Part shown: positions 11,738 through 48,469 of the stretch, piece by piece | Layout: each line of letters opens with the position of its first letter | Position numbering within the stretch: position 1 is the first letter of the stretch | From: an uncultured Bacteroidales bacterium | GTDB taxonomy: Bacteria; Bacteroidota; Bacteroidia; Bacteroidales; UBA932 | Assembly (NCBI GenBank): GCA_900321655.1 | Contig: ONWU01000005.1 | Location: forward strand, 1-54,627 | DNA: 54,627 nt | Direction: 5' to 3' | Notes under the pieces: model-generated | The model's database searches: none | What the model was told of the DNA's origin: nothing | Seen by the model: only the letters and a program-made list of their open reading frames with translations | Translations under genes and position numbers: made by a program

Positions 11738-12834
11738 GACTGAGGTTCACGGGGCTCCACAGGCTGGACTGGTACATCATTCGGAAGTTCCTGGTCACTT
11801 TCTTCATGGCCATCCTCTTCCTGGCGGTGATTATCATCATCTTCGACGTCAGTGAGAAAATCGAGGACTTCATCAACAAGGAAGCCCCCCTGAAAGCCAT
11901 TATCTTTGACTATTACTGCAATTTCGTCCCGTACTTCATGAACATGTATTCTCCCATGTTCGTGTTCCTGACGGTCATCTTCTTCACCTCCAAGATGACG
12001 CAGGATTCGGAGGTGATTGCCATTCTGTCGGGCGGAATCAGCTACCATCGCTTCGCCCTGCCGTATCTGCTGTCGGCCTGCTTTATCGCGCTCCTGTCCC
12101 TGGAACTGGGGCAGTGGGTGATTCCCCACGCCAACGGTGTCCGGGTGGATTTTGAGCAGAAGTACAATCCCCGCCACAAGGTGAATATCGGGCACGACAT
12201 GCATTACAAGCTGGAAGATGACCATTTTGTGTATCTGGAAAGCTTCAGCGCCTACAACAATACGGCGTACAATTTCACGCTGGAAGACCTCTCGGGCGGC
12301 AAACTCCGCTCCAAGATTACGGCCGAATCGGCCCAATACGATACCCTTACCGGGGTATGGCACCTGAGAAACTGGTTCGTGCGGGATTATGACGAAGGCA
12401 TGAAAGACCATATCCGCAGCGGCCGCCAGATGGATACCACCCTCAGTCTCACCAGGGACGACTTTTTCCTGAACAAGTACACCATCCAGCGCCTGAACAA
12501 GCGGGAACTGGACCAGCTGATAGAAACCCAGATTATGCGTGGAGATGCTTCTGTGAATCAGGCACTTATAGAAAAGAACAACCGCTATTCGCTGCCCTTC
12601 TCCACCATCATCCTTACCATCATCGGCCTCAGCCTTTCTACCCGGAAGAAGAGGGGAGGGATGGGCTGGAACCTGGCGGCGGGAACGGCCCTGGGCTTCT
12701 CCTACATCTTGTTTATGCAGTTCAGTGAAATGTTTGTGATTACGGATACCCTTCCGGCATCCATCGCCATCTGGCTGCCCAACTACCTCTATACTATCAT
12801 AGCCATCGTCCTGTATATCAAAGCTCCCAAATAA
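11734..12834 (+). CDS. LPS export permease, LptG/LptF (YjgP/YjgQ) family
   Basis: This 366-residue protein has the LptF/LptG layout: an N-terminal helix block ([21 protein letters not shown], then two more segments to about residue 135), a periplasmic beta-jellyroll (about 135-270) and three C-terminal helices. In the LPS transport complex such permeases pull lipid A from the inner membrane and hand it to LptC. The family signature SGGISYHRF is present. It overlaps tgt by 4 nt and dut by 1 nt, so it is translationally coupled. Whether it is LptF or LptG is uncertain; Bacteroidetes usually keep the two at separate loci. Confidence 0.88.
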
Positions 12835-30151: not shown

Positions 30152-30742
30152 ATGGCAAACAAACCTTTAGATACCCAACTGCTGGACCGGGCCATCATTT
30201 TCGCCGTCAAGGCACATGCTGGCACGGAGCGCCGCGGAAAGGGCTTCCCTTACATCGTTCACCCTATGGAGGCCATGGAAATTGTAGCCACCATGACCCC
30301 GGACCAGGAACTGCTGGCGGCTGCCGCCCTGCACGATACCGTGGAGGATACGGACGTGACAGTAGAGCAGATCCGGGAAGAATTCGGAGAGCGCATAGCT
30401 TCTCTGGTAGCGGCCGAAAGCGATGTGATGGTGGAAGGAGTCAGTGAGGAAGACAGCTGGCATGCCCGCAAGAAGGCTGCCATAGACCGCCTGGCAAACG
30501 CCAGTCACGATGCGAAGATGGTGGCCCTCGGAGACAAACTTTCCAATATGAGAGCCATTGCCCGGGATTACGCCGTTCAGGGAGACAAGCTTTGGTCTCT
30601 TTTCCACGCCTCGGATCCCAAGGATCACGAATGGCATTACCGGGGCCTAGCCAATTCCCTCAGGGAACTGGACAACACCTTTGCCTTCAAGGAATTTGAA
30701 TCTTTAATAGACCAAGTCTTCTCTTCCAATCATGAGCATTAA
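30152..30742 (+). CDS. HD-domain alarmone hydrolase-like protein (SpoT/MESH1 type)
   Basis: This 196-residue protein consists of one HD metal-dependent phosphohydrolase domain of the RelA/SpoT hydrolase type: His22 (KAHAG), His37 (IVHPMEAM), His61-Asp62 (ALHDTVEDT) and the later DKLSNM. No synthetase or regulatory domain is attached, as in small alarmone hydrolases (MESH1-like), which degrade (p)ppGpp. It overlaps the SpoIIE phosphatase gene by 11 nt, so the two are co-expressed. A related nucleotide substrate is possible. Confidence 0.83.
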   Translation: MANKPLDTQLLDRAIIFAVKAHAGTERRGKGFPYIVHPMEAMEIVATMTPDQELLAAAALHDTVEDTDVTVEQIREEFGERIASLVAAESDVMVEGVSEEDSWHARKKAAIDRLANASHDAKMVALGDKLSNMRAIARDYAVQGDKLWSLFHASDPKDHEWHYRGLANSLRELDNTFAFKEFESLIDQVFSSNHEH

Positions 30743-32456
30743 AATTCCGGATTCTCTCAAACACGGAGTCAAGGCTGGTGTTCTGCTTGTTATTGTTGCT
30801 CTCCTAACCCTGGAGGCCACATCCCTCATTCAGTATTATTTCTCCCAGCAGGGCATCAAGGAAGAATCCACGTCCCGTGCCAGGGGCCAGCTGGAAAGCT
30901 CCAGCAACAAGATCATGGACATTATCAACCAGACGGAAGCGGCCGTTCGCAACAGCGTCTGGATTGCCCAGTGGTGCCTGAATGTCCCGGACAGCCTCAT
31001 TCGTGTGGCCCAGCGGGTGGTGGAAGACAATCCCGTAGTAGTGGGTTCCACCGTGGCCGTAGTTCCCGGTTATCTGAAAAGCCATCCGCTTTTCTCGCCG
31101 TATGTGTGCGAGGGGCCCGATGGCCTGGAATTCAAGACGCTGGCAACGGAAGAGTATGATTATCCCAGTCAGGAATGGTTCGTAAAGCCACTGGAACTTC
31201 AGGAGGGCTACTGGTCGGAGCCTTATGTAGATGAAGGCGGCGGAAACATCCTGATGACCACCTATTCGCTCCCTATCCGGGACCAGGAAGGGGAGATTGC
31301 GGCTATTCTTACGGCCGATATTTCCCTGGAGTGGCTCACCAAGATGGTGGGGAATATCCAGGTTTATCCCCACGCATACAGCATGATCCTGTCCCGGGAG
31401 GGGCAGGTGGTGGTTTCCCCGGTGAATAACGAACAATCGGAGCATATTGCCCGGGAGGTGATAAAGGCCAATATGGAAACCGGAGCGGCCGGAGAATTCA
31501 CCGTACAGAAGCGGGCCCTTTCCGATCTGGTCTTCTATACCCCCATTGAGCGCACAGGCTGGGTTATGTCCATCGTCATTCCCGAGAGCGTGATATACGC
31601 CGGCATCCGTCGCATCGCCCTTATGGTGGGCCTCCTTCAGGTCCTGGGTATTATGATGATCATTCTCATCATTTCTTCCGTATTCAAGAACCAGAGGGAA
31701 CTCAACGAGATCAATGCCCAGAAAGACCGTATGGAGGGAGAACTGCAGGTGGCCAGCAACATCCAGATGTCGATGGTGCCCAAGATTTTCCCGCCGTTCC
31801 CCAACAGGGACGATCTGGACATGTCGGCCTTCCTGGTTCCTGCCAAGGAGGTGGGAGGAGACCTCTACGACTTCTTCATCCGGGACGAGAAGCTTCATTT
31901 CTGCATCGGAGACGTCTCCGGAAAGGGTGTTCCTGCGTCCCTTTTGATGGCGGTCACCCGTACGCAGTACCGTACGCTGGCCACCCATTACGACAGCCCT
32001 TCCCGCATTGTCACTTCCATCAACGACGGAATGACGGACATGAATGACAACAATATGTTTGTCACCTTCTTCTGCGGTATCCTGGATCTTGAGACCGGCT
32101 TGTTGAAGTACTGCAATGCCGGCCACAATGCTCCGTACATCCTCACGGATGCCATCCGGGAACTGGACGTGAAGCCCAATCTGCCGCTGGGTATTATGGA
32201 CGGGATGGTGTTTGAGGAGCAGGAGGTTATGATGCGCTACGACGATGCCCTGTTCCTGTACACGGACGGTCTCAACGAGGCGGAAAACATCAACCACGTC
32301 CAGTTCGGAGACGAAGGCGTCCGTGCTGTCCTTCACACCCGCCGCGATGCGGACGGCCACCTGAAGGCTATGGAGAAGGCCGTGATAGATTTCCGTGGAG
32401 AGGCGGACCAGAGCGACGACCTCACGATGCTCTTTATCCACTATTTGAAGAAATAG
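30732..32456 (+). CDS. Membrane dCache-sensor SpoIIE/PP2C-type phosphatase
   Basis: This 574-residue protein has an N-terminal helix (about 15-35), an extracytoplasmic double Cache-like sensor (about 40-290, with QEWFVKPLELQEGYWSEPY), a second helix (about 295-318) and a cytoplasmic SpoIIE/RsbU-type phosphatase domain (about 350-574; GGDLYDFF, IGDVSGKGVPASL, NAGHNAPY, LYTDGLNEAEN). Family members dephosphorylate anti-sigma antagonists in partner-switching circuits. No STAS or anti-sigma gene lies nearby. The domain layout implies an external ligand controls it. It overlaps the upstream HD-domain gene, suggesting joint stress signalling. Confidence 0.88.
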   Translation: MSIKIPDSLKHGVKAGVLLVIVALLTLEATSLIQYYFSQQGIKEESTSRARGQLESSSNKIMDIINQTEAAVRNSVWIAQWCLNVPDSLIRVAQRVVEDNPVVVGSTVAVVPGYLKSHPLFSPYVCEGPDGLEFKTLATEEYDYPSQEWFVKPLELQEGYWSEPYVDEGGGNILMTTYSLPIRDQEGEIAAILTADISLEWLTKMVGNIQVYPHAYSMILSREGQVVVSPVNNEQSEHIAREVIKANMETGAAGEFTVQKRALSDLVFYTPIERTGWVMSIVIPESVIYAGIRRIALMVGLLQVLGIMMIILIISSVFKNQRELNEINAQKDRMEGELQVASNIQMSMVPKIFPPFPNRDDLDMSAFLVPAKEVGGDLYDFFIRDEKLHFCIGDVSGKGVPASLLMAVTRTQYRTLATHYDSPSRIVTSINDGMTDMNDNNMFVTFFCGILDLETGLLKYCNAGHNAPYILTDAIRELDVKPNLPLGIMDGMVFEEQEVMMRYDDALFLYTDGLNEAENINHVQFGDEGVRAVLHTRRDADGHLKAMEKAVIDFRGEADQSDDLTMLFIHYLKK

Positions 32457-37377: not shown

Positions 37378-39822
37378 TCAGATATTATTGAGGAAATAAT
37401 CTATAACCATATCCTTACTTTCCTGGGTGGTCAGGAATTGGAAATGGTCTGTATCGGAGTGGACAATCTCACATTGGGGATAACGTTTCTTCCAACGCTG
37501 CTCATTGGTTTTGAATTCAGCCAATTCCATTTCCCTGAGTTCGGGAGATTTTACAAAGTTGCTATTGATAGGGATTGCTTCCGTGAAGTGGGTGGAAACG
37601 ATGGAGGTAACCGGTCCGTTGTAGGTTTCCTCGGGCATGGTGGCCATCAGCTTGACGTCCAGTTCACTCCGGTGTTTGTTCCGTTCTTCACTCAGGTGAG
37701 GGAAGTAGTAGCCGGGCATAATCATCTCCTGGATTTTGATGTCGCGGTCCAGTTCTCCGTCCAGGACAATCACACGGGGTTTGTAGCTTTGTTTGTTGTA
37801 GATGCGGGCAGCAAGGGCCAGGGCCTGCTCACCGCCGGCGCAGAATCCCGTAATAACCGCCACGTTGCGCTCTTTGATTACGCGTTCTATATACGTCTGA
37901 TAGATATCAAGCAGGCCGTTCATGTCTGTCACTTGATCCTCCATGATGGTATGATAGGACTCGATGGCGTAGATGGCATACTTCTGGGAAACTTTCCGGG
38001 CCCATTCTCCAAAGAGGAAGTCAAAGCTGGTGAATCCGCTGATGACTATAATGACCGGTTTCTCCGGTTCGTTTTCTCCGTTGCCAAACCAGAAAGCATT
38101 GGGGTGCTTTTCGGCGGCCATGATGCGGCGAATGGTCCTCAGGGAATAGAAATCGTTGGCGGTAAGGTGAACGCCGGTCTGGTCTATCAATACAATCAGC
38201 TGCATGATGTGCAGGGATGTAATACCTACATCATTGATCAGATCGGCATCGATATTGATGCTGGGCAGGCCGAGAAGTTCGGCAGCGGCATTAACGAGCA
38301 GCTCTTCGCGCGGACTGATGGGCTCTTCATTGATGGTAATGGGACTGATGGCTTCGTTGACAAGGGTCGATTGGTCAATCTTACCGTTGATGTTCAGTTT
38401 AAACTCCTTGACCTGATTCCAGTAGGTGGGAACCATGTAGGCGGGGAGTTCCTTGGCCAGATTTTTCTTGATGGAATCGAAGCCCTTCACGCCAGGGGCC
38501 AGCATGACATAGGCCACTATATACTTCTCGGTACCTACCTGCTCAAGGCGCACAAAAGCCCTTGTCACACCTTCCTGCCTTTCAATAGCGGCAGTGATTT
38601 CTCCCAGTTCAATGCGGAAACTGCGCAGTTTGATCTGGCCGTCTTTGCGGCCCACGTAATTGAAACTGCCGTCCGGGTTAAGCTTTACCAAGTCTCCGCT
38701 GTGATACAGCCTGGATACGTCTATTCCGTCGTGCTCTTTTTCGAAGGGGTTCTCGGTAAAGACCCGGGACGTCAGTTCCGGACGGTTCCAGTAGCCGTTG
38801 GTAACCTGCATACCCGCAATGCAGAGTTCTCCGGATTCTCCGGGAGCTACCTGTTTGCCTTCTTCGTTGACCACATAGCAAACAGTGCCTAGGGCGGGTT
38901 TGCCTATGCACTGCCATTCATCGGCATTCTTAAACTCGTGGGTAGTCATAACCACGCAGGTCTCGGTGGGGCCGTATGCATTGACAAAACGGTAGGGGTA
39001 CTTTCCGGCTATTTTGCTGGTGAGGCTCTGCGGAATGGCTTCGCCACCGGCCGATAAGGTTTCCATGGCGGGGAAATTGTAATCGGGGAAGATGGCCAGC
39101 AGGGAAGGGGGCATAAAGGCAAAGGTAACCTCCTTCTGTTTGATTAGACTGTGAAGAAGCACGGCATTGTGCCTCTCTTCATTCTGGGCAATGATGAGCG
39201 TTCCGCCATAGAAGAGCGAGGAATAGATCTCCAGGACCGAAGCGTCAAAGCTGATGCTGGCGAACTGGAGGATGACGGAGTGGTCGCTAATCTGGAAATT
39301 GTCCGGATGGCACACCGTCTGGCAGTAACTGTAAAGGGCCTTATAGGGGACAGAAACGCCTTTGGGCTGTCCCGTAGTGCCGGAAGTATAAATCATGTAT
39401 ACCTCTGAAAAGCCTCTTTTCAGGAGGGGGAGAGGCTCTGTCAGGGGACTGGAAAGAAGTTCGTCGATATTATCGGCCGTTATCAGGAAACTTACGCCGG
39501 CATCCTTGCAGATAAAGTCTCTGCGCTCCAGGGGATTCTCTACGTCAATGGGAACATAAGAGCAGCCCAGTTTGACGGAAGCCAGCATGCAAGGCAGGTA
39601 ATGTTGGTTTCTGCCCAGGTATATACCAATGCGGACAGGAACCTCCGGGTCACCGGCATGGATATCTATCCTGGAAGCCAGGCCGGAAGCTATGCGGTTG
39701 GCCATCTCATCCATCTGGGCATACGTAACCTCTTGTTTGCCAATGATGTATGCGGCCTTATCCCGATATGTCTCAATAATGTTCCTTAACCTTTCTGTCA
39801 GTTTTTCGAAATATATATCCAT
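37378..39822 (-). CDS. NRPS-like enzyme, A-T-TE (no condensation domain)
   Basis: This 814-residue protein has an adenylation domain (about 1-490), a carrier domain (about 505-575) and a thioesterase-type alpha/beta hydrolase (about 588-814). Adenylation motifs are YTSGTTGQPKG (145-155), NAYGPTE (281-287), YHSGD (373-377), GRKDGQIKLRSFR (391-403) and Lys481 in NINGK. The carrier Ser is Ser536 (DVGITSL). The thioesterase elbow is GFCAGG, with Cys661 where Ser is usual, and Asp688 and His793 complete a triad. By eye, the pocket residues read D-A-L-F-L-A-A-V-V-K, suggesting a hydrophobic amino acid. It is last in a six-gene operon, 20 nt after the TonB receptor. The product is unknown. Confidence 0.85.
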   Translation of the reverse strand: MDIYFEKLTERLRNIIETYRDKAAYIIGKQEVTYAQMDEMANRIASGLASRIDIHAGDPEVPVRIGIYLGRNQHYLPCMLASVKLGCSYVPIDVENPLERRDFICKDAGVSFLITADNIDELLSSPLTEPLPLLKRGFSEVYMIYTSGTTGQPKGVSVPYKALYSYCQTVCHPDNFQISDHSVILQFASISFDASVLEIYSSLFYGGTLIIAQNEERHNAVLLHSLIKQKEVTFAFMPPSLLAIFPDYNFPAMETLSAGGEAIPQSLTSKIAGKYPYRFVNAYGPTETCVVMTTHEFKNADEWQCIGKPALGTVCYVVNEEGKQVAPGESGELCIAGMQVTNGYWNRPELTSRVFTENPFEKEHDGIDVSRLYHSGDLVKLNPDGSFNYVGRKDGQIKLRSFRIELGEITAAIERQEGVTRAFVRLEQVGTEKYIVAYVMLAPGVKGFDSIKKNLAKELPAYMVPTYWNQVKEFKLNINGKIDQSTLVNEAISPITINEEPISPREELLVNAAAELLGLPSINIDADLINDVGITSLHIMQLIVLIDQTGVHLTANDFYSLRTIRRIMAAEKHPNAFWFGNGENEPEKPVIIVISGFTSFDFLFGEWARKVSQKYAIYAIESYHTIMEDQVTDMNGLLDIYQTYIERVIKERNVAVITGFCAGGEQALALAARIYNKQSYKPRVIVLDGELDRDIKIQEMIMPGYYFPHLSEERNKHRSELDVKLMATMPEETYNGPVTSIVSTHFTEAIPINSNFVKSPELREMELAEFKTNEQRWKKRYPQCEIVHSDTDHFQFLTTQESKDMVIDYFLNNI

Positions 39823-39842
39823 ACACTACTTGTTAATAATTC

Positions 39843-42194
39843 TTAGAACTTGAAAGCCACGTGGCCCAGTATCCAGCGTCCGGCCTGCCGCATGGGAGCT
39901 ACACTGGATCCGCCTTGAACGTAAACCGTATTGGCAATGTTATAAACATTGATGCCCATTTCCACTTTCCAGATGTGGTAGCTGGCACCCAAGTCAAACA
40001 GCACGCGTGCCGGAATGTCAATGTTCAGGGGTTCTGCTCCAGGCAGGGCGTACTCGCTGTACTGTTTGGAAACAAAGTGGGCGTGAGCGTTGATCTTGAG
40101 CCCCTTCAGCACCTCATAGGATGCGGTAAGGTTGGCCTGCCAGTCCGGGATATTGTAAACGCTGTGGTTGATGATGCCGAAGTTCTGGGAATCCAGCACC
40201 CGCTGCCAAGTAACGTTACCGTCCACCATGAAACGGGAGAAGGAGTAACCGGCTACAAGCTCTACACCGGCGTTGGTAAGACTACCGGCGTTGGTGTTAC
40301 CCAATTCACTCTGGATGATGAAATTATCGGCCTTATTGATAAAGCCGTTGAGTTCCAGTTTCAGGCCCGGGACAATCTTTCCGTCGCTGTAGACAGACAT
40401 CTGCCAGGAGTTCAGGTATTCGGGGGAGAGATCTGCATCTCCGGAGTTAATGTCAAACGTGTTGTTGCGGTAGTAATACGGTGAGTCTACGAAAGACTTG
40501 GAATAGCTGATTTTGGCACTCCACTTGGGGAAGGAGTAGATCAGGGCTATACGGGGGGACAGCTCGTTCATCACCTTGCCGTGGGAGCGCTTCTTGAAGT
40601 CATATCGCAGGCCGGCATTCATAACCAGTCCCTTCCAGGTGTGCTTGACCTGGAGATAGGCGTCGGCGCTGGTCTCCTTGCCAGTGTATAATACCTTGAG
40701 GTCGTTGTATGTCTTCAGGATTACGCTGAAATCATTTCCTTCCAGGTAGCTGGCGTCGGACAGCGTGAAATTGTTGAAGTGACCGCCCACCATGATGATC
40801 CCCGAATGGTTCTTCCCAAAATTATAGTTGTAACTGCCCTGGGCCGAAACGCCATAAGTGTATTCGTTCCAGTTGGCGCTTTGGAATACTCCGTCGTAGA
40901 GTTCGAGGGTAACCCACTCCGCTCCGTTGGGATGGATTTCGTTGGATCCCACATCCGGAATCTTGTCTCCGCCAATCTGGTAGCGCTGCTGATTTTGCGA
41001 GTCAAAGAACACGGTAGCCTGCCAGGCAAATTTACCTGCGTTGTCGGAGTAACCTATCTCCGCATGTTGGGAACCGATGGCATAACCCGGAGCGTTGTTG
41101 TTGAGAAGACGGTATTTTTCGTAGCTGTACGGGGTAAAGAAATAACTCAGGGCCAAGGGCGCCACCGTCTTTGCGAAGCGGCGGTTATAAAGGAGATGGA
41201 TTTTGTTCCATTTCAAGGCTACACCCAGGTCGTAGGAGGGCGTCTTATTATAGCCTCCAATAATCATATCGCCTTCAATGGGCGTGTCCGAATAGGGCTG
41301 TTCGTCCCAGTTGGCGCCATAATGCACCTTCTGACCGGTGGCCTGATAGACGGTGGCCCAGGTCAGGAGGTCCAAAGACAGGTAGCGCTTGCCAAACAGG
41401 AGGTCTCCGCGAAGCTGTCCGTAGTTGCCCACGCTGGCCTTGGCCAGGAAACCGTCCACATCGGAGCCTTCCTTGGTGATGAGGTTCACTACACCCGTAA
41501 GAGCCACGCCGCCGTACAGGGATGAGGCAGGTCCTCGCAGCACCTCAATCTGCTTGACTTTTTCCAGGCTGATGGAGAAATCGGGGCTGGCTGCGTTGGT
41601 GGAATAACTGTTGAGGCGGTGGCCGTTGAGCATGATGAGAATCTTCTCCTGCCCGGAGGAGTAGATGCCTCGCATAGCCACGTTCATCTCTTCGTTGCAG
41701 GCTATGTCGGTCATGCCGGGAACGTAGGCAATCAGGGCTTCCTTCAGGGTTCTGGCCCCAATGCTCCGGATCATCTCCTCCGTGATGAGGGTCACCGGCA
41801 CGGGCGCCTCTTCAATGGATTCGGCCTGTTGGGAAGCCGTGGTAATGGTGGCGGTCTTGCCGGCCTTGATGCGGTTCACCATTTCGGCGAAGCGGGGAGC
41901 GTCGTTGTAAACGCTGTAATAAGGGTCTACGGCCAGCAGGCGGGAGACCCACGACTGTGCCACTTCGGGTTTGTCCATGTTGAGGTTGCACAGGGCAAGC
42001 AGCCGGTATACGCCAATGCGCGTCTCTCCTTTGAAGCTGTTCACCGAGCCGGTAAGCAGGGAGTCGGCTTTCTGGAAATGGCCGAGCTCATAAGCTTCCT
42101 GGGCCGACTCATACACTCGCGTAGCTTCCTGTGCCCGGGCGGCCGAAGCGATAAGCAGGATAAGGAGCGCGGTTATGTATCTCTGGAATCTCAT
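39843..42194 (-). CDS. TonB-dependent outer-membrane receptor with TPR-like N-terminus
   Basis: This 783-residue protein has a signal peptide (1-21), a TPR-like helical region (about 25-110, AYELGHFQKADSLL and RLLALCNLNMDKPEVAQSW), a plug domain (about 125-235, PVTLITEEMIRSIGA and IEVLRGPASSLYGGVALTGVVN) and a beta-barrel ending in phenylalanine (FKF). It looks like a siderophore/vitamin-type receptor; there is no SusD partner or SusC-type N-terminal domain. Its ATG overlaps the upstream histidine kinase stop by 4 nt. Uptake of the neighbouring NRPS-like enzyme's product, or of a metal complex, is inferred from context. Confidence 0.85.
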   Translation of the reverse strand: MRFQRYITALLILLIASAARAQEATRVYESAQEAYELGHFQKADSLLTGSVNSFKGETRIGVYRLLALCNLNMDKPEVAQSWVSRLLAVDPYYSVYNDAPRFAEMVNRIKAGKTATITTASQQAESIEEAPVPVTLITEEMIRSIGARTLKEALIAYVPGMTDIACNEEMNVAMRGIYSSGQEKILIMLNGHRLNSYSTNAASPDFSISLEKVKQIEVLRGPASSLYGGVALTGVVNLITKEGSDVDGFLAKASVGNYGQLRGDLLFGKRYLSLDLLTWATVYQATGQKVHYGANWDEQPYSDTPIEGDMIIGGYNKTPSYDLGVALKWNKIHLLYNRRFAKTVAPLALSYFFTPYSYEKYRLLNNNAPGYAIGSQHAEIGYSDNAGKFAWQATVFFDSQNQQRYQIGGDKIPDVGSNEIHPNGAEWVTLELYDGVFQSANWNEYTYGVSAQGSYNYNFGKNHSGIIMVGGHFNNFTLSDASYLEGNDFSVILKTYNDLKVLYTGKETSADAYLQVKHTWKGLVMNAGLRYDFKKRSHGKVMNELSPRIALIYSFPKWSAKISYSKSFVDSPYYYRNNTFDINSGDADLSPEYLNSWQMSVYSDGKIVPGLKLELNGFINKADNFIIQSELGNTNAGSLTNAGVELVAGYSFSRFMVDGNVTWQRVLDSQNFGIINHSVYNIPDWQANLTASYEVLKGLKINAHAHFVSKQYSEYALPGAEPLNIDIPARVLFDLGASYHIWKVEMGINVYNIANTVYVQGGSSVAPMRQAGRWILGHVAFKF

Positions 42195-43054
42195 TTTGCA
42201 ATCTTTACAGGAATGATGAACGTGAAGGTGGTTCCTACTTTGGGCGCTGTCTCTACGAGCAGCTGTCCGTTATGATTCTTGGTAATTAAATCATAGGTGA
42301 TACCCATTCCCAGGCCGGTTCCCTGACCGGCGGGCTTGGTGGTGAAGAAATTCTCGAAAATCTTGGCTTTTATTTCGGGGGTCATGCCCATTCCGTTGTC
42401 CGTGATATCAATCCTGAGGTCTCCCTCATTTCCGTCCTTGGGTGTGAAGGCCACTTTGGCAGTGATGGTGGGTTTGTAGTCGGGGCCTTCCTGGCCGGTC
42501 CTTTCCTTAACCGTGTAGCAGGCGTTGTTCATAACGTTGAGAACGGCGCGGCTCAGGTCCTGGGGAATGACCATGAATTTGGGCAGCCCTTCCGGAATCT
42601 CTTCCTGGATGGAAATGTTGAAGCTCTTGTCATTGGCGCGCATGGCATGGTAGCTGAGCCACACGTATTCGTGGACCAGCTGGCCAATGTCTGTGGGGAG
42701 TTTTTCGCCCGCCTTGCCGCGGCTTTGCAGCAGGATGCCCCGGATGATGCTGATGGCACGCTCTCCGTGTTCCTGGATCTTGGCCAGGTTTTCCTTCAGA
42801 TCGGCCGAAATGTCCTGGAGATCGTCGGCATCGTCTTTTTCCAGCTTGTCCCCGCAGTGGCTCAGGATATCCTGCATGTCCTCCAGCAGATTGGCCGACA
42901 TCTTGCTGAAGTTGATGACAAAATTAAGCGGGTTCTGTATTTCGTGGGCAATACCGGCACTGAGGAGACCCAGGGAGGCCATCTTTTCCTGCTTGTGCAA
43001 CTGTTGCTGCAAATATTCCACCTGTTTTTTCAGGTCTTCCATTTCCACATCCAT
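42191..43054 (-). CDS. Soluble sensor histidine kinase
   Basis: This 287-residue protein has no membrane helix. It has an N-terminal coiled coil (1-25), a HisKA-type dimerisation domain with the phosphoacceptor His37 (SAGIAHEIQNPLNF), and a complete ATPase domain (N box VLNVMNNACYTV, G1 DITDNGMGM, F box FFTTK, G2 GTGLGMGI). It lies between a membrane sensor that has lost its own phospho-accepting His and the TonB receptor gene. It probably receives the signal from that partner and phosphorylates the REC-SpoIIE protein of the same operon. This routing is inferred. Confidence 0.9.
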   Translation of the reverse strand: MDVEMEDLKKQVEYLQQQLHKQEKMASLGLLSAGIAHEIQNPLNFVINFSKMSANLLEDMQDILSHCGDKLEKDDADDLQDISADLKENLAKIQEHGERAISIIRGILLQSRGKAGEKLPTDIGQLVHEYVWLSYHAMRANDKSFNISIQEEIPEGLPKFMVIPQDLSRAVLNVMNNACYTVKERTGQEGPDYKPTITAKVAFTPKDGNEGDLRIDITDNGMGMTPEIKAKIFENFFTTKPAGQGTGLGMGITYDLITKNHNGQLLVETAPKVGTTFTFIIPVKIAK

Positions 43055-43060
43055 AATATA

Positions 43061-45613
43061 TTAGGTCAGGCTAATTACAAATTCTGTATAATCGTCTTTG
43101 GAGGAGTTCACCGTAATGTTGCCTCCGCAGTCGTGCATGATCTGCTGGCTCAGGTACAGGCCCACGCCGGGAGCCTCTGCGGTGGGCTTGGTGGTAAAGA
43201 AGGGGTCGAAAATCTTGTTCAGGATGCTTTCCTCGATACCTATACCGTTGTCGTAGATCTTGATGACGGCTTTGCCATCTTCCTCCAGCACGGACACCCG
43301 GATGACGGGACTGTACGGGGCACCACCTTTCTCGGCCTTCTTCTTGATGGCATAAATGCTGTTGGCCAGCATGGACATCAAGGACTTGCCCATCTGATCG
43401 GCCACCACATTCCGCATCAGGGGAGCAGCAGGCAGGTTGGTCTCTACCTGGATGCCCAGGGCGTTGATTTCGCTGGCATAGTAGGCCTTGAGCTTGTCTA
43501 CGCACTGCTGGCTAAGCTGGACCAGATCGGTGGGCTCGAACTTTTGGGAGCGTTCCTTAAGCATTTCCTCCATGGCCTTCAGGGTACGGGTGGTGGAGGT
43601 TCCGTGCTGCTCGATCTTTTCCAGGTTGGTATTCATCATGTCCATTACATCCACGGAATCTTCATAGATGTCGGGTGTAAGGCGGTCTTTTTCATCCTCA
43701 ATGTTCTGCCGCATGTCCTTGGCCAGCCCCAGCGTCAGATGCGCAAAGTTGTTGATGTAGTTCATGGGGTTGAGAATACGGTCAATGAGGCCTTTGGTGA
43801 GTTTACCGATGGCGGCCTCCCGCTCCTGGCGGAGCAGCTGGTCCTGGGCCGACCGGAGTTCTTTGGTCCTCTCGTCCACAATGGCTTCCAGCCTTTCCTG
43901 TTCCTCCGCCATACGGCGCATACGGTGCTGGAACCAGAGATAGACCAGCCCCACGGCAATCATCAGGTAAACGAGCAGGGAGTACCAGCGCACAAAGAAC
44001 GGGTAGGGTCTCTTGAACTCGTACGGGATGCTTTGGCTAATCTGGCCGAAGGCGTCCTTGGAGCGGACCTCTACCTGGTAGGAACCAAAGTTGATGTCTG
44101 CGAACAGGTATTCCTGCTGGGCGCTCCAGGCCGACCAGGCGTTGTCGTTATGCAGGCGGTAGCTGTACAGGGTCTCTCCGAGGGGGTCCAGTTTGTCATT
44201 GGCAAAACTGAGGGAGAGTCCTCCGTCGTTGAAATTGAAACGGCGGATGTGCAGCTGGGGCGTATACAGTTGGGCCGAAGCGCACTGGCCCAGGTTGAAC
44301 CGGATCAGTTCCTCATAGTCTCCTATCCAGGCAAGTCCGCCATGGACCAGCATGGCGTTGACTTTGGATTGGTCAAAGGGCTCCACCCACTCTTCCAGGT
44401 CTTCTGGCATATCGTCGTAGAAGAGGCCGGTGCCGTCACTGTTGCCGTGCCACACGTTGCCCTGGTTGTCTACGTACTCAAAGAGTTTGGAGATGGGGCC
44501 TTCGTCTTTCTTCTGGAACCGGTGGCCGCCGGCTTCCATAAAATAATAGTCACCGGCCAGGGTCAGGGCCCACATGCCTTGTCCGTCTTTCTTGAAACTG
44601 GTGATATTGGGAATATCGCCCACGGTTTGGATCTCCTCTCCGGGGCGGAAGCGGCAGACGCGCTCCAGTTCTCCTACCAGGTAGGAACCGTCTCCCAGGG
44701 CGGCTATGGAAAGGGAGAACTTGGTGGTTAACTGGCGTACTTTCCCGCTGGTGTACTCATAAAGGCCGTCCGAGGTGGCTACATAGAGGGTACCGTTTGC
44801 GCCCTGGACCATCTGCCAGCAGGCGTGGTTGATTTGCGGAACCTGGACAAAACGCTGCCCTTCCAGGCGGAAAAGGCCCTGGAACGTGCCCAGCATCAGG
44901 GTAGGGCCGCACATCTCCAGGCAGGAGATCTGACCCCGGAATCCTTCCTTTTCCGTAAAGCGGGTGTAGATTTCGGAGACGGAAACGCTGAAGACGCCGT
45001 TATCCGTGGCGCCCCAGACCGTTCCCTTGCCGTCATAGGCCAGCTTGGTGATACTGTTGGAGCAGAGCCCGTTTTCTACATTGATTTTCCAAACTTCCTC
45101 TCCCTGTGCATTGAGGGCTATGATACCATCCGTGGCCGTGGCCAGGAGGGTGCGGTTGTCGCTTAGCTTGAGACGCTGGTAAACCTCAATGTCTTTCCAG
45201 CGGTCCACGACGGTATCTCCGCTGCGCTTTTTGCCGGAAAACGGGGTGTAGGAAACGCGGATGGAATCCCCCTCAAAGGATTCTACCTTTCCCGTTAGAT
45301 TGATGCCGTCAAAGAGGATGGCGCCGTCGGCATCCTTGCGCAGGCTTACAACACGGGAGATGTCGGGCGTATGGACCATGGTCCAGTGAACATGGTTGTA
45401 CACCAGGAGACCTTCAAAGTTGGCAAAGAAGGTGTGGCCTTCGTCGTCGCAGAGGACATCGAAGTTGCGGTTGTGGGCATCGTACTGGCCGGCCGAGTAG
45501 TTCCGGAAGAACGGGATGCCCATGTGGGCGTCCGTTCCGCTTTGGGCGGCAGCCTGCACCGTGCACAGCAGCACGGCGGCCATCAAACTGATATGATACG
45601 CTAACCTTCTCAT
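43061..45613 (-). CDS. Propeller/Y_Y_Y membrane sensor with degenerate histidine kinase domain
   Basis: This 850-residue protein has a signal peptide (1-22), a periplasmic sensor of two-component propeller repeats (about 25-430), a Y_Y_Y-like domain (about 460-555), a membrane helix (about 560-585), a coiled coil, and a kinase core. In the H box the usual H-E is replaced by Asp611-Arg612 (GLIDRILNPMNY), while the ATPase motifs remain (DNGIGI, FFTTK, GVGLYL). It is probably a pseudo-kinase working with the soluble kinase encoded 6 nt downstream. Start 45613 overlaps the WD40-like gene stop by 4 nt; a longer frame to 45658 would spoil the signal peptide. Confidence 0.87.
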   Translation of the reverse strand: MRRLAYHISLMAAVLLCTVQAAAQSGTDAHMGIPFFRNYSAGQYDAHNRNFDVLCDDEGHTFFANFEGLLVYNHVHWTMVHTPDISRVVSLRKDADGAILFDGINLTGKVESFEGDSIRVSYTPFSGKKRSGDTVVDRWKDIEVYQRLKLSDNRTLLATATDGIIALNAQGEEVWKINVENGLCSNSITKLAYDGKGTVWGATDNGVFSVSVSEIYTRFTEKEGFRGQISCLEMCGPTLMLGTFQGLFRLEGQRFVQVPQINHACWQMVQGANGTLYVATSDGLYEYTSGKVRQLTTKFSLSIAALGDGSYLVGELERVCRFRPGEEIQTVGDIPNITSFKKDGQGMWALTLAGDYYFMEAGGHRFQKKDEGPISKLFEYVDNQGNVWHGNSDGTGLFYDDMPEDLEEWVEPFDQSKVNAMLVHGGLAWIGDYEELIRFNLGQCASAQLYTPQLHIRRFNFNDGGLSLSFANDKLDPLGETLYSYRLHNDNAWSAWSAQQEYLFADINFGSYQVEVRSKDAFGQISQSIPYEFKRPYPFFVRWYSLLVYLMIAVGLVYLWFQHRMRRMAEEQERLEAIVDERTKELRSAQDQLLRQEREAAIGKLTKGLIDRILNPMNYINNFAHLTLGLAKDMRQNIEDEKDRLTPDIYEDSVDVMDMMNTNLEKIEQHGTSTTRTLKAMEEMLKERSQKFEPTDLVQLSQQCVDKLKAYYASEINALGIQVETNLPAAPLMRNVVADQMGKSLMSMLANSIYAIKKKAEKGGAPYSPVIRVSVLEEDGKAVIKIYDNGIGIEESILNKIFDPFFTTKPTAEAPGVGLYLSQQIMHDCGGNITVNSSKDDYTEFVISLT

Positions 45614-47274
45614 TTGAACTTCATATATGGAATGGAGGCGCCAACGTAACGGGTCCATTCCTGTTGGGTGAGATTCCGGTTGATTCTGCGATACACCTGC
45701 CCGGCCATGTCATCGGCCGATGAATTGAGCGTCATCACGTTGCCGGAGGAGGTGCCAATCCAGACGGTTTTGCCATCGGCGTCTCCGCATACGGACAAGG
45801 TCCATCCGTCAAACGTATAATCTACGGGGACCAGCCATTCTGTGGGGATGCTCTTGCTGTCCGTGGGCTGCCTGGTTACAACTACCGATTCTTGCTGCAG
45901 CTCTTCCTGGAAGGTTAATCTGCTCTCATACAGCAGGTTGTTCATGCTCCAGATAAAGACCGTCTTGTCGTAGCCGCCGGTAACGACCACATCCCCCAGC
46001 ATGGTGATGCTGATGCAGCGCGACTTGTGGGCGGCCAGGGTTTCCATGACACGGTTATACTTATTGAGGGGGTATACCGTTCCGTCTTCCACGCCCAGCA
46101 GCAGGCACTGGGTGGCGCTGTCAAAGCAAGCGGCGGTAACCACATACGGGACAAGGGGTTTCTTATATTCAATGGTACCCGCTATATCCATCTCTGCGTA
46201 GGAGCCGTCTGCGAAGAAAAGGCAGATGGTCTCGTTGCGGCTCACCAAGGCCGAAAGGGTCTTGGTAAGGGTTACGCTTCCCGTAATCTTCCCGCCGGAG
46301 AACCAGCTCAGGCTTGTGCGGCCTGCCAGCAGCAGACCTTTGCCCATGCCGATTATTTTGAAATAATTCTCCTCGGGAAGCTGGATTTCTTCCAGATTGC
46401 TCTGGAAATCGAGGATGCAGAGGGGACCCTTGTTCGAGAGGGCGTAAATCTTTCCGTCCGTTACCTGCACATCCCGGAAGTCGTATTGGGGATCGAACAG
46501 GAGGGTTTGGGCCGACAGGCTTTTGGCATTGCCCCGGGAGCCTGCGGTTATCCATTCCACCTCACCGTAATTGGTGACGGCTACGCACTGGCCCGGCGTG
46601 CCGGGAATCTGGGAGATGGCGTTGACGGCGCCGTTTTCCGGAACCCGGTAGCGGGGGATGCCGCCCGTGGCCAATGTCAGGGACTTGAAGGTGTCTGAAT
46701 AATACTGGTTTCCCCGGTTGTTCTTCAGGAAATACCAGCTGGCGTAGGCCAGGAGGTTGGCCACTTCGGACTCTCCTGCTTCCCGCCTTACCTGGGAGCT
46801 GACCGCCAGGCTCCGGGCCTGGGTACGGCGGTTGAGCGTATCGGTCACGTTTTTGGCATACGTGGCCTCATCTCTCTGCTCTTCGGCTATCATCTGCTGC
46901 CTTTCGGCATTGATACGTTCTTTTTCGGCCAATTCTGCAGCGGCATGGGCCTTTTGTTCCGCCTCATGGGCGGCGCGGCTTTCCATTTCCGCTCGCTGGG
47001 CGTTGCGGGTGGCCAGGATGGATTGTTCTTCGGCCCGGTCTCTCTGCTGGTCGGAGATGGCTTTCTGCTGATAGGCAATATCCTCCATCTGCTGGCTTAC
47101 GCGCTTGACGATGGCGGCATCCTTTTCGGCTTCCACCAGGCGGTCCATTTCTTCCTGCATGGCCTCCAGCTCCCGCTGGGAATGCCTGCTTCCCAGGTGG
47201 TAGGAGACAACCGCCACGCCAATCAGGAGCACGGCCGCTACCACTGCATATAATATGATTGGACGGATTTTCAC
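45610..47274 (-). CDS. Membrane-anchored coiled-coil/WD40-like beta-propeller protein
   Basis: This 554-residue protein has one N-terminal helix (about 7-27), a long charged coiled coil (about 30-150, with runs like ERINAERQQMIAEEQR) and a C-terminal beta-propeller-like region (about 215-525, including VVVTGGYDKTVFIWSMNN). It ends in RNLTQQEWTRYVGASIPY, a tail very like that of WD40-containing nSTAND proteins. No ATPase domain is present. It starts with GTG, overlapping the REC-SpoIIE stop (GTGA). It may be a scaffold or phosphatase target at the membrane; no function is established. Confidence 0.8.
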   Translation of the reverse strand: MKIRPIILYAVVAAVLLIGVAVVSYHLGSRHSQRELEAMQEEMDRLVEAEKDAAIVKRVSQQMEDIAYQQKAISDQQRDRAEEQSILATRNAQRAEMESRAAHEAEQKAHAAAELAEKERINAERQQMIAEEQRDEATYAKNVTDTLNRRTQARSLAVSSQVRREAGESEVANLLAYASWYFLKNNRGNQYYSDTFKSLTLATGGIPRYRVPENGAVNAISQIPGTPGQCVAVTNYGEVEWITAGSRGNAKSLSAQTLLFDPQYDFRDVQVTDGKIYALSNKGPLCILDFQSNLEEIQLPEENYFKIIGMGKGLLLAGRTSLSWFSGGKITGSVTLTKTLSALVSRNETICLFFADGSYAEMDIAGTIEYKKPLVPYVVTAACFDSATQCLLLGVEDGTVYPLNKYNRVMETLAAHKSRCISITMLGDVVVTGGYDKTVFIWSMNNLLYESRLTFQEELQQESVVVTRQPTDSKSIPTEWLVPVDYTFDGWTLSVCGDADGKTVWIGTSSGNVMTLNSSADDMAGQVYRRINRNLTQQEWTRYVGASIPYMKFK

Positions 47275-48434
47275 TTTCTACGGATTACTAACTGGGTGAT
47301 ATCGTCACTCTGGGCGGCGCCGTTGATGAACTCTTTGACCTTGGCGTTGACGGTGTCCACGATGTGTTTGCTGTCTGCGCCCTTGCACTCTGCCAGGGCT
47401 TCTTCCAGGCGGGACTCGCCAAATTGGTCGTGGTTCTTGTTCTCGGCCTCGGTTACGCCGTCCGTATACATGAAGAGGGTGTCCCCGGGTTCGAGCTCAA
47501 GCGTATCGCAGCTGAAAGGCATGTCGGGAACGGCCCCCAGAACCAGGTTGCAGGGCGATTTCACTACCTCCACCTGCCCATCGGCCTTAAGGATGTAAGG
47601 CGGGTTGTGGCCGGCGTTGGTGAAGGTGATCTGGCCGGTCTGCAAGTCGTAGATGCCGTAGAATACGGTTACGAACATGGAACCTACGCTTTCGTCGCAC
47701 AGGATGTCGTTGACCGTACTCATGCACTCGTTGGTGGGTTTGTCCTGGAGACCGGTAGCCTTGATGAGGGTACGGCTTACTGCCATGAAGATGGCGGCGG
47801 GCACACCCTTGCCGCTTACATCGGCTATGGTAAAGCCCATTCTGTGGTCGTCAATGGGGAAGAAGTCGTAAAAGTCTCCTCCTACATCCTTGGCGGCCAG
47901 CATGCTGGCGTAGATGTTCACTTTGTCTGCATCCTGGAGCTTGAGATCGAAGGTGCGGGGAAGGATGGCATGCTGGATTTCCCGGGCTACGGAGAGGTCT
48001 GTCTGGATGTCCACCAGTTGGGCATGCTCCTTCTGGGCGCTGCGGATATACTCGATCTGCTCCACCGCCTTGTCAATGGTGCGCTGGAGGTCGTCCAGGT
48101 CTATGGGCTTGGTGGCAAAGTCGAAGGCGCCTCCGTTCATGGCCTGACGGATGTTATCCATGTCTCCATAAGCGCTTACCATGATGCACTTGAGGGACGG
48201 GATACGCATCTCGTTAATCTTTGCCAGAAGCGTAAGGCCATCCATCTCGGGCATGTTGATGTCCGAGAGGATGATGGAAATATCCGGATGCTTGAGAAGG
48301 ACCTGGAGTGCCTCCAGCCCGTTGTGGGCAAAAAAGAACTCGTATTCCCCATTTCTGATCTTTCTGCGGAAGTATTGCGTCAGCAACAGTTCAAGATCGG
48401 TTTCGTCGTCTACGCTGAGTATTTTAATGGACAT
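47271..48434 (-). CDS. Response regulator fused to SpoIIE/PP2C-type phosphatase
   Basis: This 387-residue protein has a receiver domain (1-125) with the acidic pair Asp9-Asp10, phospho-accepting Asp58 (LSDINMPEMDG), Ser87 and Lys109. A linker helix leads to a SpoIIE/RsbU-type phosphatase domain (about 150-387; GGDFYDFF, IADVSGKGVPAA, NAGHNPPY, MYTDGVTEAEN). Receiver phosphorylation is expected to control Ser/Thr dephosphorylation of a partner. It is the first gene of the six-gene operon and has a perfect -7 box 27 nt upstream. No STAS or anti-sigma gene is nearby, so the phosphatase target is unknown. Confidence 0.92.
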   Translation of the reverse strand: MSIKILSVDDETDLELLLTQYFRRKIRNGEYEFFFAHNGLEALQVLLKHPDISIILSDINMPEMDGLTLLAKINEMRIPSLKCIMVSAYGDMDNIRQAMNGGAFDFATKPIDLDDLQRTIDKAVEQIEYIRSAQKEHAQLVDIQTDLSVAREIQHAILPRTFDLKLQDADKVNIYASMLAAKDVGGDFYDFFPIDDHRMGFTIADVSGKGVPAAIFMAVSRTLIKATGLQDKPTNECMSTVNDILCDESVGSMFVTVFYGIYDLQTGQITFTNAGHNPPYILKADGQVEVVKSPCNLVLGAVPDMPFSCDTLELEPGDTLFMYTDGVTEAENKNHDQFGESRLEEALAECKGADSKHIVDTVNAKVKEFINGAAQSDDITQLVIRRK

Positions 48435-48461: not shown

Positions 48462-48469
48462 CAAATATA
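48462..48469 (-). promoter_or_regulatory. Promoter of the signalling/NRPS-like operon
   Basis: A perfect minus-strand -7 box TATATTTG (48469-48462) lies 27 nt before the REC-SpoIIE ATG and 26 nt after the kbl stop. No other perfect -7 box was noticed between 48434 and 37378 in the gaps, which are all 20 nt or shorter. Confidence 0.65.

What the first reader, a model, noticed from the sequence alone, without database searches (positions are those of the whole stretch)
37378..48434. Six-gene operon joining a signalling cascade, a TonB receptor and an NRPS-like enzyme
All six genes are on the minus strand, with 4 nt overlaps or gaps of 6 and 20 nt, behind one perfect promoter. They encode a REC-SpoIIE phosphatase, a membrane coiled-coil/WD40-like protein, a propeller/Y_Y_Y sensor, a soluble histidine kinase, a TonB-dependent receptor and an A-T-TE enzyme. 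I know no described system with this set. The simplest reading is a self-contained circuit that senses an external cue, acts through phosphorelay and Ser/Thr dephosphorylation, and makes and retrieves a small amino-acid-derived molecule. The alternative is that the receptor and enzyme are unrelated passengers of the signalling genes.
Basis: partly seen in the sequence, partly recalled or inferred. Interest (0 to 1): 0.85.

Follow-up and report, generated by a model that had tools for sequence, protein, structure and literature searches.

The report
Swappable receptor-synthetase pair on phosphorelay
A six-gene operon in an uncultured gut-type bacterium ties a fixed signalling relay, built on a paired inactive and active histidine kinase, to an interchangeable pair of genes (an outer-membrane receptor and a small peptide-making enzyme) that appears to move between species as a unit, which suggests that the cells make a small molecule and then detect or retrieve it.

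Summary
In detail: six tightly packed minus-strand genes, 37378-48434. It is a recurrent system, not a one-off. Of 80 loci found through the soluble kinase, 57 are of cassette type (50 show REC-SpoIIE, WD40, propeller protein and kinase in this order; 55 have the TonB receptor next). A TE-ended NRPS shares the gene chain in 17 of the 51 that can be judged. New points: (1) the propeller protein is a pseudo-kinase: phospho-acceptor His-Glu is Asp-Arg in 62 of 62; the adjacent small kinase keeps His-Glu in 64 of 64. (2) Receptor barrel and A-T-TE covary with each other, not with the core; a roughly 99%-identical barrel+enzyme block sits in another species' bin and stops at the enzyme's stop codon. 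(3) The receptor's TPR-like N-domain follows the core in A-T-TE cassettes, but not where the NRPS lies between kinase and receptor. Best reading: a make-and-sense/retrieve circuit, like pyoverdine/FpvA in logic, run by a two-kinase relay onto a PP2C phosphatase. Ligand, signal direction and phosphatase target are inferred. Against: 34 of 51 cassettes lack an NRPS, and the propeller sensor does not track the enzyme.

The parts
48462..48469 (-). -7-type promoter box TATATTTG, 35 nt before the first gene's ATG
   Evidence: consensus recalled. In 30 of 54 cassettes (fetched loci; L092 and L193 are the same genome) a TAnnTTTG lies within 160 nt before the REC-SpoIIE ORF as called, against 6 of 162 internal gene starts
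47271..48434 (-). REC-SpoIIE response regulator/PP2C-type phosphatase, 387 aa
   Evidence: Pfam; REC Asp9, Asp10, Asp58, Lys109 and SpoIIE Asp187, Asp205, Asp377, Asp378 present in 58 of 58 rows (catalytic roles recalled)
45610..47274 (-). hydrophobic N-terminal helix, about 108-residue helix and WD40 beta-propeller, 554 aa
   Evidence: AlphaFold2 pLDDT 84.7, PDB WD40 matches by profile and fold; Pfam WD40 itself below cut-off
43061..45658 (-). propeller (Reg_prop)/Y_Y_Y-like sensor fused to a pseudo-histidine kinase; likely start ATG at 45613
   Evidence: HATPase_c present, HisKA absent; H-box GLIDRILNP (Asp-Arg at 43778-43783) where active kinases have His-Glu
42191..43054 (-). soluble histidine kinase, 287 aa, H-box GIAHEIQNP (His37)
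   Evidence: His, Glu and the N/G-box residues examined present in 64 of 64
39843..42194 (-). TonB-dependent receptor, 783 aa
   Evidence: plug, barrel; 21 plug-domain hits in the whole genome
41859..42134 (-). receptor N-domain (residues 21-112), TPR-like, not STN
   Evidence: weak TPR matches only; the only match to it in the own genome is this one
37378..39822 (-). stand-alone A-T-TE NRPS-like enzyme, 814 aa (A about 38353-39777, T 38116-38301, TE 37381-38055)
   Evidence: carrier Ser536, TE Cys661-Asp688-His793 invariant in the 9 rows
37410..41144 (-). block about 99% identical at DNA level to contig C46 of another same-genus genome (G624 = RGIG1112): most of the receptor barrel plus the enzyme

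Best explanation
A conserved signalling core with a slot for an exchangeable receptor + NRPS cargo. Shown by sequence: (a) the core REC-SpoIIE / WD40 / propeller pseudo-kinase / soluble kinase recurs as a unit; (b) the pseudo-kinase always pairs Asp-Arg in its H-box with a neighbouring kinase that keeps His-Glu; (c) receptor barrel and A-T-TE enzyme are co-inherited and exchanged together against the core. Inferred: the A-T-TE loads one amino acid on its carrier domain and a Cys thioesterase releases a small product; the product is exported and the cognate TonB receptor recognises it (alone or bound to a metal or other partner); receptor occupancy is reported across the envelope, probably through the receptor's TPR-like N-domain, to the propeller sensor; the pseudo-kinase forms a complex with the soluble kinase and controls its autophosphorylation; the REC domain passes the state to the SpoIIE phosphatase, which acts on a Ser/Thr-phosphorylated partner and so sets expression of target genes, perhaps the operon itself. 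In logic this is a lock-and-key make-and-sense (or make-and-retrieve) circuit like pyoverdine/FpvA, with a two-kinase relay and a PP2C phosphatase in place of anti-sigma and ECF sigma factors.
For: Order conserved in 50 of 57 cassette-type loci, receptor next in 55 of 57, NRPS in the chain in 17 of 51 judged. NRPS variants are A-T-TE, C-A-T-TE, A-T-C-A-T-TE, C-A-T-C-A-T-TE and a three-module form. In the genus sample a full-length A-T-TE occurs in 4 of 200 genomes including the own, and the same 4 are among the 5 of 200 with the WD40 core gene. Pseudo-kinase Asp-Arg 62 of 62, kinase His-Glu 64 of 64; the relatives without a separate small kinase (L154-L171 less L165, 17 loci, and L062) keep His in every ORF with a readable H-box. 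Ten A-T-TE cassettes: enzyme-receptor Mantel r 0.82 (p 0.0002), 0.88 given the core; enzyme-core 0.25 (p 0.10); the barrel carries it (0.89); stable when near-duplicates are dropped (n 9, 8, 7). Receptor tree groups by NRPS type, while the NRPS label needs at least 9 changes on the core tree. RGIG1112 block: core about 75% identical, barrel + enzyme about 99%, loss of identity right after the enzyme's stop. Lock-and-key covariation of synthetase and receptor is the published signature for pyoverdine and FpvA (PMC11734721, passages seen).
Against: 34 of 51 judged cassettes have no NRPS in the chain. The propeller sensor region does not covary with the enzyme (r -0.34 given the core), so a sensor specific for the product is not supported. 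Neighbouring genes can be co-transferred without functional coupling. The N-domain/core link breaks where the NRPS is interposed (L111 against L134: core 90%, N-domain 44%), and nearest neighbours by core agree with those by N-domain hardly more often than with those by barrel (23 against 20 of 53). The NRPS label on the core tree, though scattered, is still more clustered than shuffles (9 against a mean of 14.8). The RGIG1112 link between core and cargo rests on a 141-nt contig overlap in a metagenome bin with about 5% contamination. No exporter, phosphatase target or ligand was found in the operon; nothing was measured.
Confidence: 0.5

Rival explanations
1. Metallophore or nutrient scavenging only. 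The NRPS product is a scavenger retrieved by its receptor, the core regulates the pair in response to an outside cue, and the receptor does not signal.
For: Receptor and enzyme covary as in siderophore lock-and-key pairs; the receptor's best NCBIfam relatives are haem/siderophore receptor families, though all below their cut-offs; the propeller sensor follows the core and not the enzyme; many cassettes have a receptor but no NRPS, as expected of non-producers that use foreign molecules.
Against: A dedicated TPR-like N-domain fills all 62 aligned cassette receptors and has no second match in a genome with 21 plug-domain hits, which a pure uptake receptor would not need.
Confidence: 0.27
2. Chance cargo. 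The slot behind the kinase is a hot spot in which receptor-NRPS pairs are exchanged by homologous recombination in the conserved plug region, and linkage to the signalling genes has no functional meaning.
For: The switch from core-like to enzyme-like covariation lies around residues 200-280, at and just after the conserved plug; interposed cassettes replace the whole receptor; genes after the receptor in ten NRPS-free cassettes are mixed.
Against: Order and tight spacing persist in 50 of 57 cassette-type loci, the receptor is next in 55 of 57, and the cargo genes are receptor and TE-ended NRPS again and again.
Confidence: 0.15
3. The operon is a conflict or antibiotic locus: the NRPS makes a toxin against neighbours, and the receptor and relay detect competitors or provide self-protection.
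For: Rapid exchange between species suits antagonism; Cys thioesterases make strained rings in two known NRPSs (PMC6668435, PMC11298585, passages seen).
Against: No immunity or export gene in the operon; the TE keeps Asp at the EntF-like position, 27 residues after the nucleophile, with no conserved Asp where ObiF and SulM have theirs.
Confidence: 0.08

Closest known systems
Pyoverdine synthetase / FpvA receptor circuit of Pseudomonas
   Same: NRPS and TonB receptor covary as lock and key (PMC11734721, passages seen); the receptor carries an extra N-terminal domain and sits in a regulatory circuit (recalled).
   Different: No STN domain, no FecR-like anti-sigma, no ECF sigma in the operon; instead pseudo-kinase, kinase and REC-SpoIIE; a minimal one-module enzyme; ligand unknown.
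Hybrid two-component systems and other propeller/Y_Y_Y sensors of Bacteroidota
   Same: Reg_prop-type propeller and Y_Y_Y-like region ahead of a membrane segment and a kinase-like part (segment read from the sequence).
   Different: No phospho-acceptor His, no fused REC or DNA-binding part.
DivL pseudo-histidine kinase of Caulobacter
   Same: Kinase fold with the phospho-acceptor His replaced, regulating another kinase (PMC4211667, passages seen).
   Different: Asp-Arg rather than Tyr, encoded next to its likely partner kinase, in Bacteroidota.
RsbU/RssB-like REC-SpoIIE phosphatases
   Same: REC and SpoIIE with the conserved residues examined; best NCBIfam relative is the Pseudomonas RssB family, below its cut-off.
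   Different: No STAS or anti-sigma partner in the operon; the genome has two STAS-family hits elsewhere, one beside a SpoIIE-HATPase_c_2 gene.
ObiF / SulM Cys thioesterases; AB3403
   Same: Cys nucleophile; Foldseek hits include EntF, ObiF1 and AB3403; AB3403 shares Cys with the EntF-like Asp position (PMC11298585, passages seen).
   Different: No condensation domain; Asp688 at the EntF-like position, unlike ObiF and SulM.

Membership tests
FecA/FpvA-type receptor signalling | STN N-terminal signalling domain | tested here: not met
   No STN match in the receptor nor among the families listed in a loose scan of 20 N-domains, where TPR models lead (25 of 32 families shown)
FecA/FpvA-type receptor signalling | adjacent FecR-like anti-sigma and ECF sigma | tested here: not met
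   None among the six genes; the rest of the genome was not searched for them
FecA/FpvA-type receptor signalling | receptor matched to a self-made NRPS product | tested here: inconclusive
   Sequence covariation strong; no ligand data
Active histidine kinase (propeller protein) | H-box histidine | tested here: not met
   Asp in 62 of 62
Active histidine kinase (287-aa protein) | H-box His-Glu, N and G boxes | tested here: met
   64 of 64 at the nine positions examined
Hybrid two-component system | kinase, REC and DNA-binding domain in one chain with the sensor | tested here: not met
SpoIIE/PP2C response regulator | REC phospho-site and SpoIIE metal-site aspartates | tested here: met
   58 of 58 at the nine positions examined; roles recalled
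NRPS-like A-T-TE enzyme | adenylation, carrier Ser and TE triad | tested here: met
   TE without a Pfam hit at 0.001
Beta-lactone/lactam-forming TE (ObiF, SulM) | Cys nucleophile with Asp at the late position | tested here: not met
   Cys met; Asp688 lies 27 residues after Cys661, and no Asp is invariant after it (comparison)
Siderophore system | iron chelation or Fur control | not tested
   No Fur-box search or chemistry done
Operon | single transcript | not testable with these tools
   No RNA data

The most novel reading that the evidence does not exclude
Outer-membrane pherotypes in Bacteroidales: a fixed two-kinase relay in which a sensor pseudo-kinase governs a soluble kinase reads a self-made non-ribosomal signal through a TonB receptor, and species switch signal dialect by swapping the receptor barrel + NRPS block while the receptor's N-domain stays matched to the relay.
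Probability: 0.25. Interest if true: 0.92.

Novelty: new variant of a known kind. Interest (0 to 1): 0.76.

Why it matters
If true, it gives gut and rumen Bacteroidales a self-signal or self-scavenging system built on non-ribosomal products, names candidate receptor-product pairs from sequence alone, and offers a clean case of a pseudo-histidine kinase encoded beside its active partner. It also makes a general question testable: how a Gram-negative cell reads an outer-membrane receptor into a phosphorelay. One genome in the set is titled as a strain and not as a metagenome assembly (Prevotellaceae bacterium HUN156, L108) and carries all six genes in order.

Tried and rejected
Propeller sensor as the product sensor: tested by covariation and not supported. 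N-domain as a proven interface to the core: supported in the ten A-T-TE cassettes, but the interposed-NRPS cassettes break it, so physical adjacency may explain it. Beta-lactone-type TE: rejected on the Asp position. STN-type receptor: rejected. A-T-TE elsewhere in the order: 26 of 393 genomes have a match at E 1e-60 or better, at 29-35% identity apart from the own; the one frame of similar length (G397, 823 aa or more) is cut by its contig end and has no cassette gene on its 8-kb contig. Family sample: besides the own genome, no full-length A-T-TE in 118 others and one WD40 relative, G027. The 80 loci are the best of a capped list and lean towards close relatives. Fused relatives outside the order were not examined beyond the H-box. 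Paper searches gave no listed paper on this gene set; most subscription journals and preprints are not held, so this is not proof of absence in print. Papers seen: passages only of PMC8241843, PMC6668435, PMC11298585, PMC11734721, PMC9540692, PMC4211667; all others only as search listings with abstract starts.
Full report
What is there. The window is contig C27 of a 2.11-Mb genome in 59 contigs, 82% complete; G+C of the window is 55%. The upstream neighbour on the same strand is a glycine C-acetyltransferase that ends 61 nt before the first gene. A -7-type box TATATTTG lies 35 nt before the ATG, without a matching upstream element in the spacing tested. In 30 of 54 cassettes of fetched loci such a box lies within 160 nt before the regulator ORF, against 6 of 162 internal gene starts; ORF starts there are the first ATG, GTG or TTG, so some boxes overlap the called start.

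How widespread. A WD40 query matched 2 of 119 genomes of the family (own and G027), 75 of 393 of the order, mostly through proteins of about 1040 residues, and 5 of 200 of the genus at E 1e-10. G027 and G172 (another family) carry the first five genes in the same order without the enzyme. A scan of 84,980 species genomes with the kinase alignment kept the best 80 of 590 confirmed candidates, the list being capped. Of these 80, 63 have a small separate kinase and 17 do not; 57 of the 63 are of cassette type and 6 (L140, L144, L146, L147, L149, L150; Parabacteroides, Coprenecus and one unnamed Bacteroidales) have only pseudo-kinase, kinase and REC-SpoIIE. Of the 57, 50 show REC-SpoIIE, WD40 and propeller protein upstream in order, and 55 have the receptor in the downstream chain.

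The NRPS. It stands in the chain in 17 of 57 loci; 6 more are cut before a decision, leaving 17 of 51, and 34 of 51 without. Sizes are 812-857 aa (A-T-TE, 8 loci), about 1250 (3), 1764-1792 (2), 2267 (1), about 2807 (2), and one cut (L117). Five of the larger ones were scanned by Pfam, showing C-A-T, A-T-C-A-T, C-A-T-C-A-T and three-module orders; the TE in these is mostly weak or unmatched in Pfam and was read from a GxSxG/GxCxG motif near the C-terminus (Cys in L104, L132, L143, L152; Ser in L106, L111, L126, L151). In 11 loci it follows the receptor directly, in L111, L117, L126, L132 and L151 it lies between kinase and receptor, and in L096 a second receptor follows it. In the genus sample a full-length A-T-TE was found in the own genome, G624, G582 and G532, and these four are among the five with the WD40 core; the fifth, G695, has a contig of the same length as that of L099, which has no NRPS in the chain.

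A paired pseudo-kinase and kinase. All 62 propeller or short pseudo-kinase rows that could be aligned (window and 61 loci) have Asp-Arg where the H-box has His-Glu, and keep the second N-box Asn and the G-box residues examined; the first N-box Asn is mostly lost (Asn in 4 of 62). All 64 small kinases (window and 63 loci) keep His-Glu, both Asn and the G boxes. In relatives without a small separate kinase (17 loci, and L062) each ORF with a readable H-box keeps His (one ORF, in L163, has none readable). A strictly kept Asp-Arg is not what decay looks like. The likeliest mechanism is a mixed complex in which the membrane-bound pseudo-kinase controls the soluble kinase; this is inference. DivL is a published precedent for a pseudo-kinase that acts on another kinase (PMC4211667, passages).

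Receptor and enzyme move together. For ten A-T-TE cassettes (window, L092, L093, L192, L095, L096, L097, L108, L110, L134; L193 left out as the same genome as L092) protein distances were compared by Mantel tests: enzyme against receptor r 0.82 (p 0.0002), 0.88 given the core; enzyme against core 0.25 (p 0.10); receptor against core 0.64 (p 0.0002). Split by region, the barrel follows the enzyme (0.89 with or without the core held), the receptor N-domain follows the core (0.95), and the propeller sensor, pseudo-kinase and WD40 follow the core and not the enzyme. With near-duplicates removed (n 9, 8, 7) enzyme-receptor stays at 0.66-0.75 and 0.81-0.85 given the core. Along the receptor the change lies around residues 200-280. 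Examples: L092 has the core nearest the window's (79% mean) but an enzyme and receptor nearest L096's (61% and 62%); L095 shares its core with L096 (87%) but enzyme and receptor with L097 (79% and 73%). The receptor tree (62 rows, quick method, one long branch) groups by NRPS type with few changes; on the core tree (61 rows) the NRPS label needs at least 9 changes, 7 forced by starred branches, still fewer than shuffles (mean 14.8).

A recent exchange. Genome G624 (its contig C35 is the contig of L094, RGIG1112, dairy cattle reticulum) has the core on C35, ending inside the receptor, and receptor barrel plus enzyme on C46; the contig ends share an exact 141-nt overlap. Against the window the core is about 75% identical at DNA level; from about 41144 to about 37450 identity is mostly 97-100%, with one dip to 89-91%, and it falls to background right after the enzyme's stop. 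The genes after the enzyme on C46 show no comparable match to the window. Caveats: the overlap is the kind that assemblers leave at branch points, the bin is about 5% contaminated, and the two halves are not shown on one contig.

Limits of the N-domain argument. All 62 receptors in the alignment fill at least 89 N-domain positions, the own genome has one such domain among 21 plug hits, and its sequence is TPR-like. Over 1378 cassette pairs core similarity tracks the N-domain (Spearman 0.73) more than plug (0.13) or barrel (0.36). But where the NRPS lies between kinase and receptor the N-domain goes with the cargo (L111 and L134: core 90%, N-domain 44%), and nearest-neighbour agreement is 23 against 20 of 53. 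So adjacency plus recombination near the plug may be enough to explain it.

The enzyme. The A domain keeps the Asp that in known A domains holds the amino group (Asp193 in FDxS; role recalled), so an alpha-amino acid is the likely substrate; the NCBIfam adenylation-domain model is passed (332 against 317 bits). Carrier Ser536 and TE Cys661, Asp688, His793 are invariant in nine aligned rows. Asp688 is 27 residues after the Cys, the EntF-like place; ObiF and SulM have it later (PMC6668435, PMC11298585, passages). The AlphaFold2 model (pLDDT 82, pTM 0.52) matches EntF, SrfA-C, ObiF1 and AB3403. Product unknown.

Beyond the cassette. Thirty-six other NRPS loci of the genus sample were fetched from the list; 19 have a SpoIIE gene within 600 bp and 23 within 3 kb, 13 have none in the stretch held, several of these being cut. 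Density in their flanks is 24 in 333 kb, against 7 in 2.11 Mb of the own genome and 3 in 425 kb of cassette flanks. Six such neighbours were scanned: all SpoIIE, four with a Cache-type sensor and four with HATPase_c_2. Many of these loci are orthologues, so they are not independent. It suggests that SpoIIE-type phosphatases and NRPS genes belong together in this group more widely.

Verdict. Confirmed and conserved; a new variant of a known kind. The conserved unit, the pseudo-kinase pairing and the receptor-enzyme pairing rest on sequence evidence; sensing, relay direction, ligand and output are inference.

Noticed in passing
L194-L229 (36 NRPS loci of the genus sample): 23 of 36 non-cassette NRPS genes lie within 3 kb of a SpoIIE-phosphatase gene, often divergent with gaps under about 110 nt or directly downstream.
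   Followed up: partly
window 30732-32456 (+): A Cache-SpoIIE phosphatase, one of 7 SpoIIE hits in the genome, about 5 kb beyond the enzyme end of the operon.
   Followed up: no
L140, L144, L146, L147, L149, L150: Short triads of pseudo-kinase, kinase and REC-SpoIIE without WD40, receptor or NRPS, in Parabacteroides and relatives; L150 has two pseudo-kinase genes in a row.
   Followed up: partly
L105, L107, L113, L118, L119, L096: Cassettes with two TonB receptors; the two copies are only 36-62% alike in the N-domain.
   Followed up: partly
L034-L060 and other one search matches: The WD40 protein resembles part of proteins of about 1040 residues spread through the order; what their extra part is was not examined.
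   Followed up: no
G000:C30:12083-12370 and 12399-12773: STAS-family hit next to a SpoIIE-HATPase_c_2 gene in the own genome, a possible partner-switching set.
   Followed up: no
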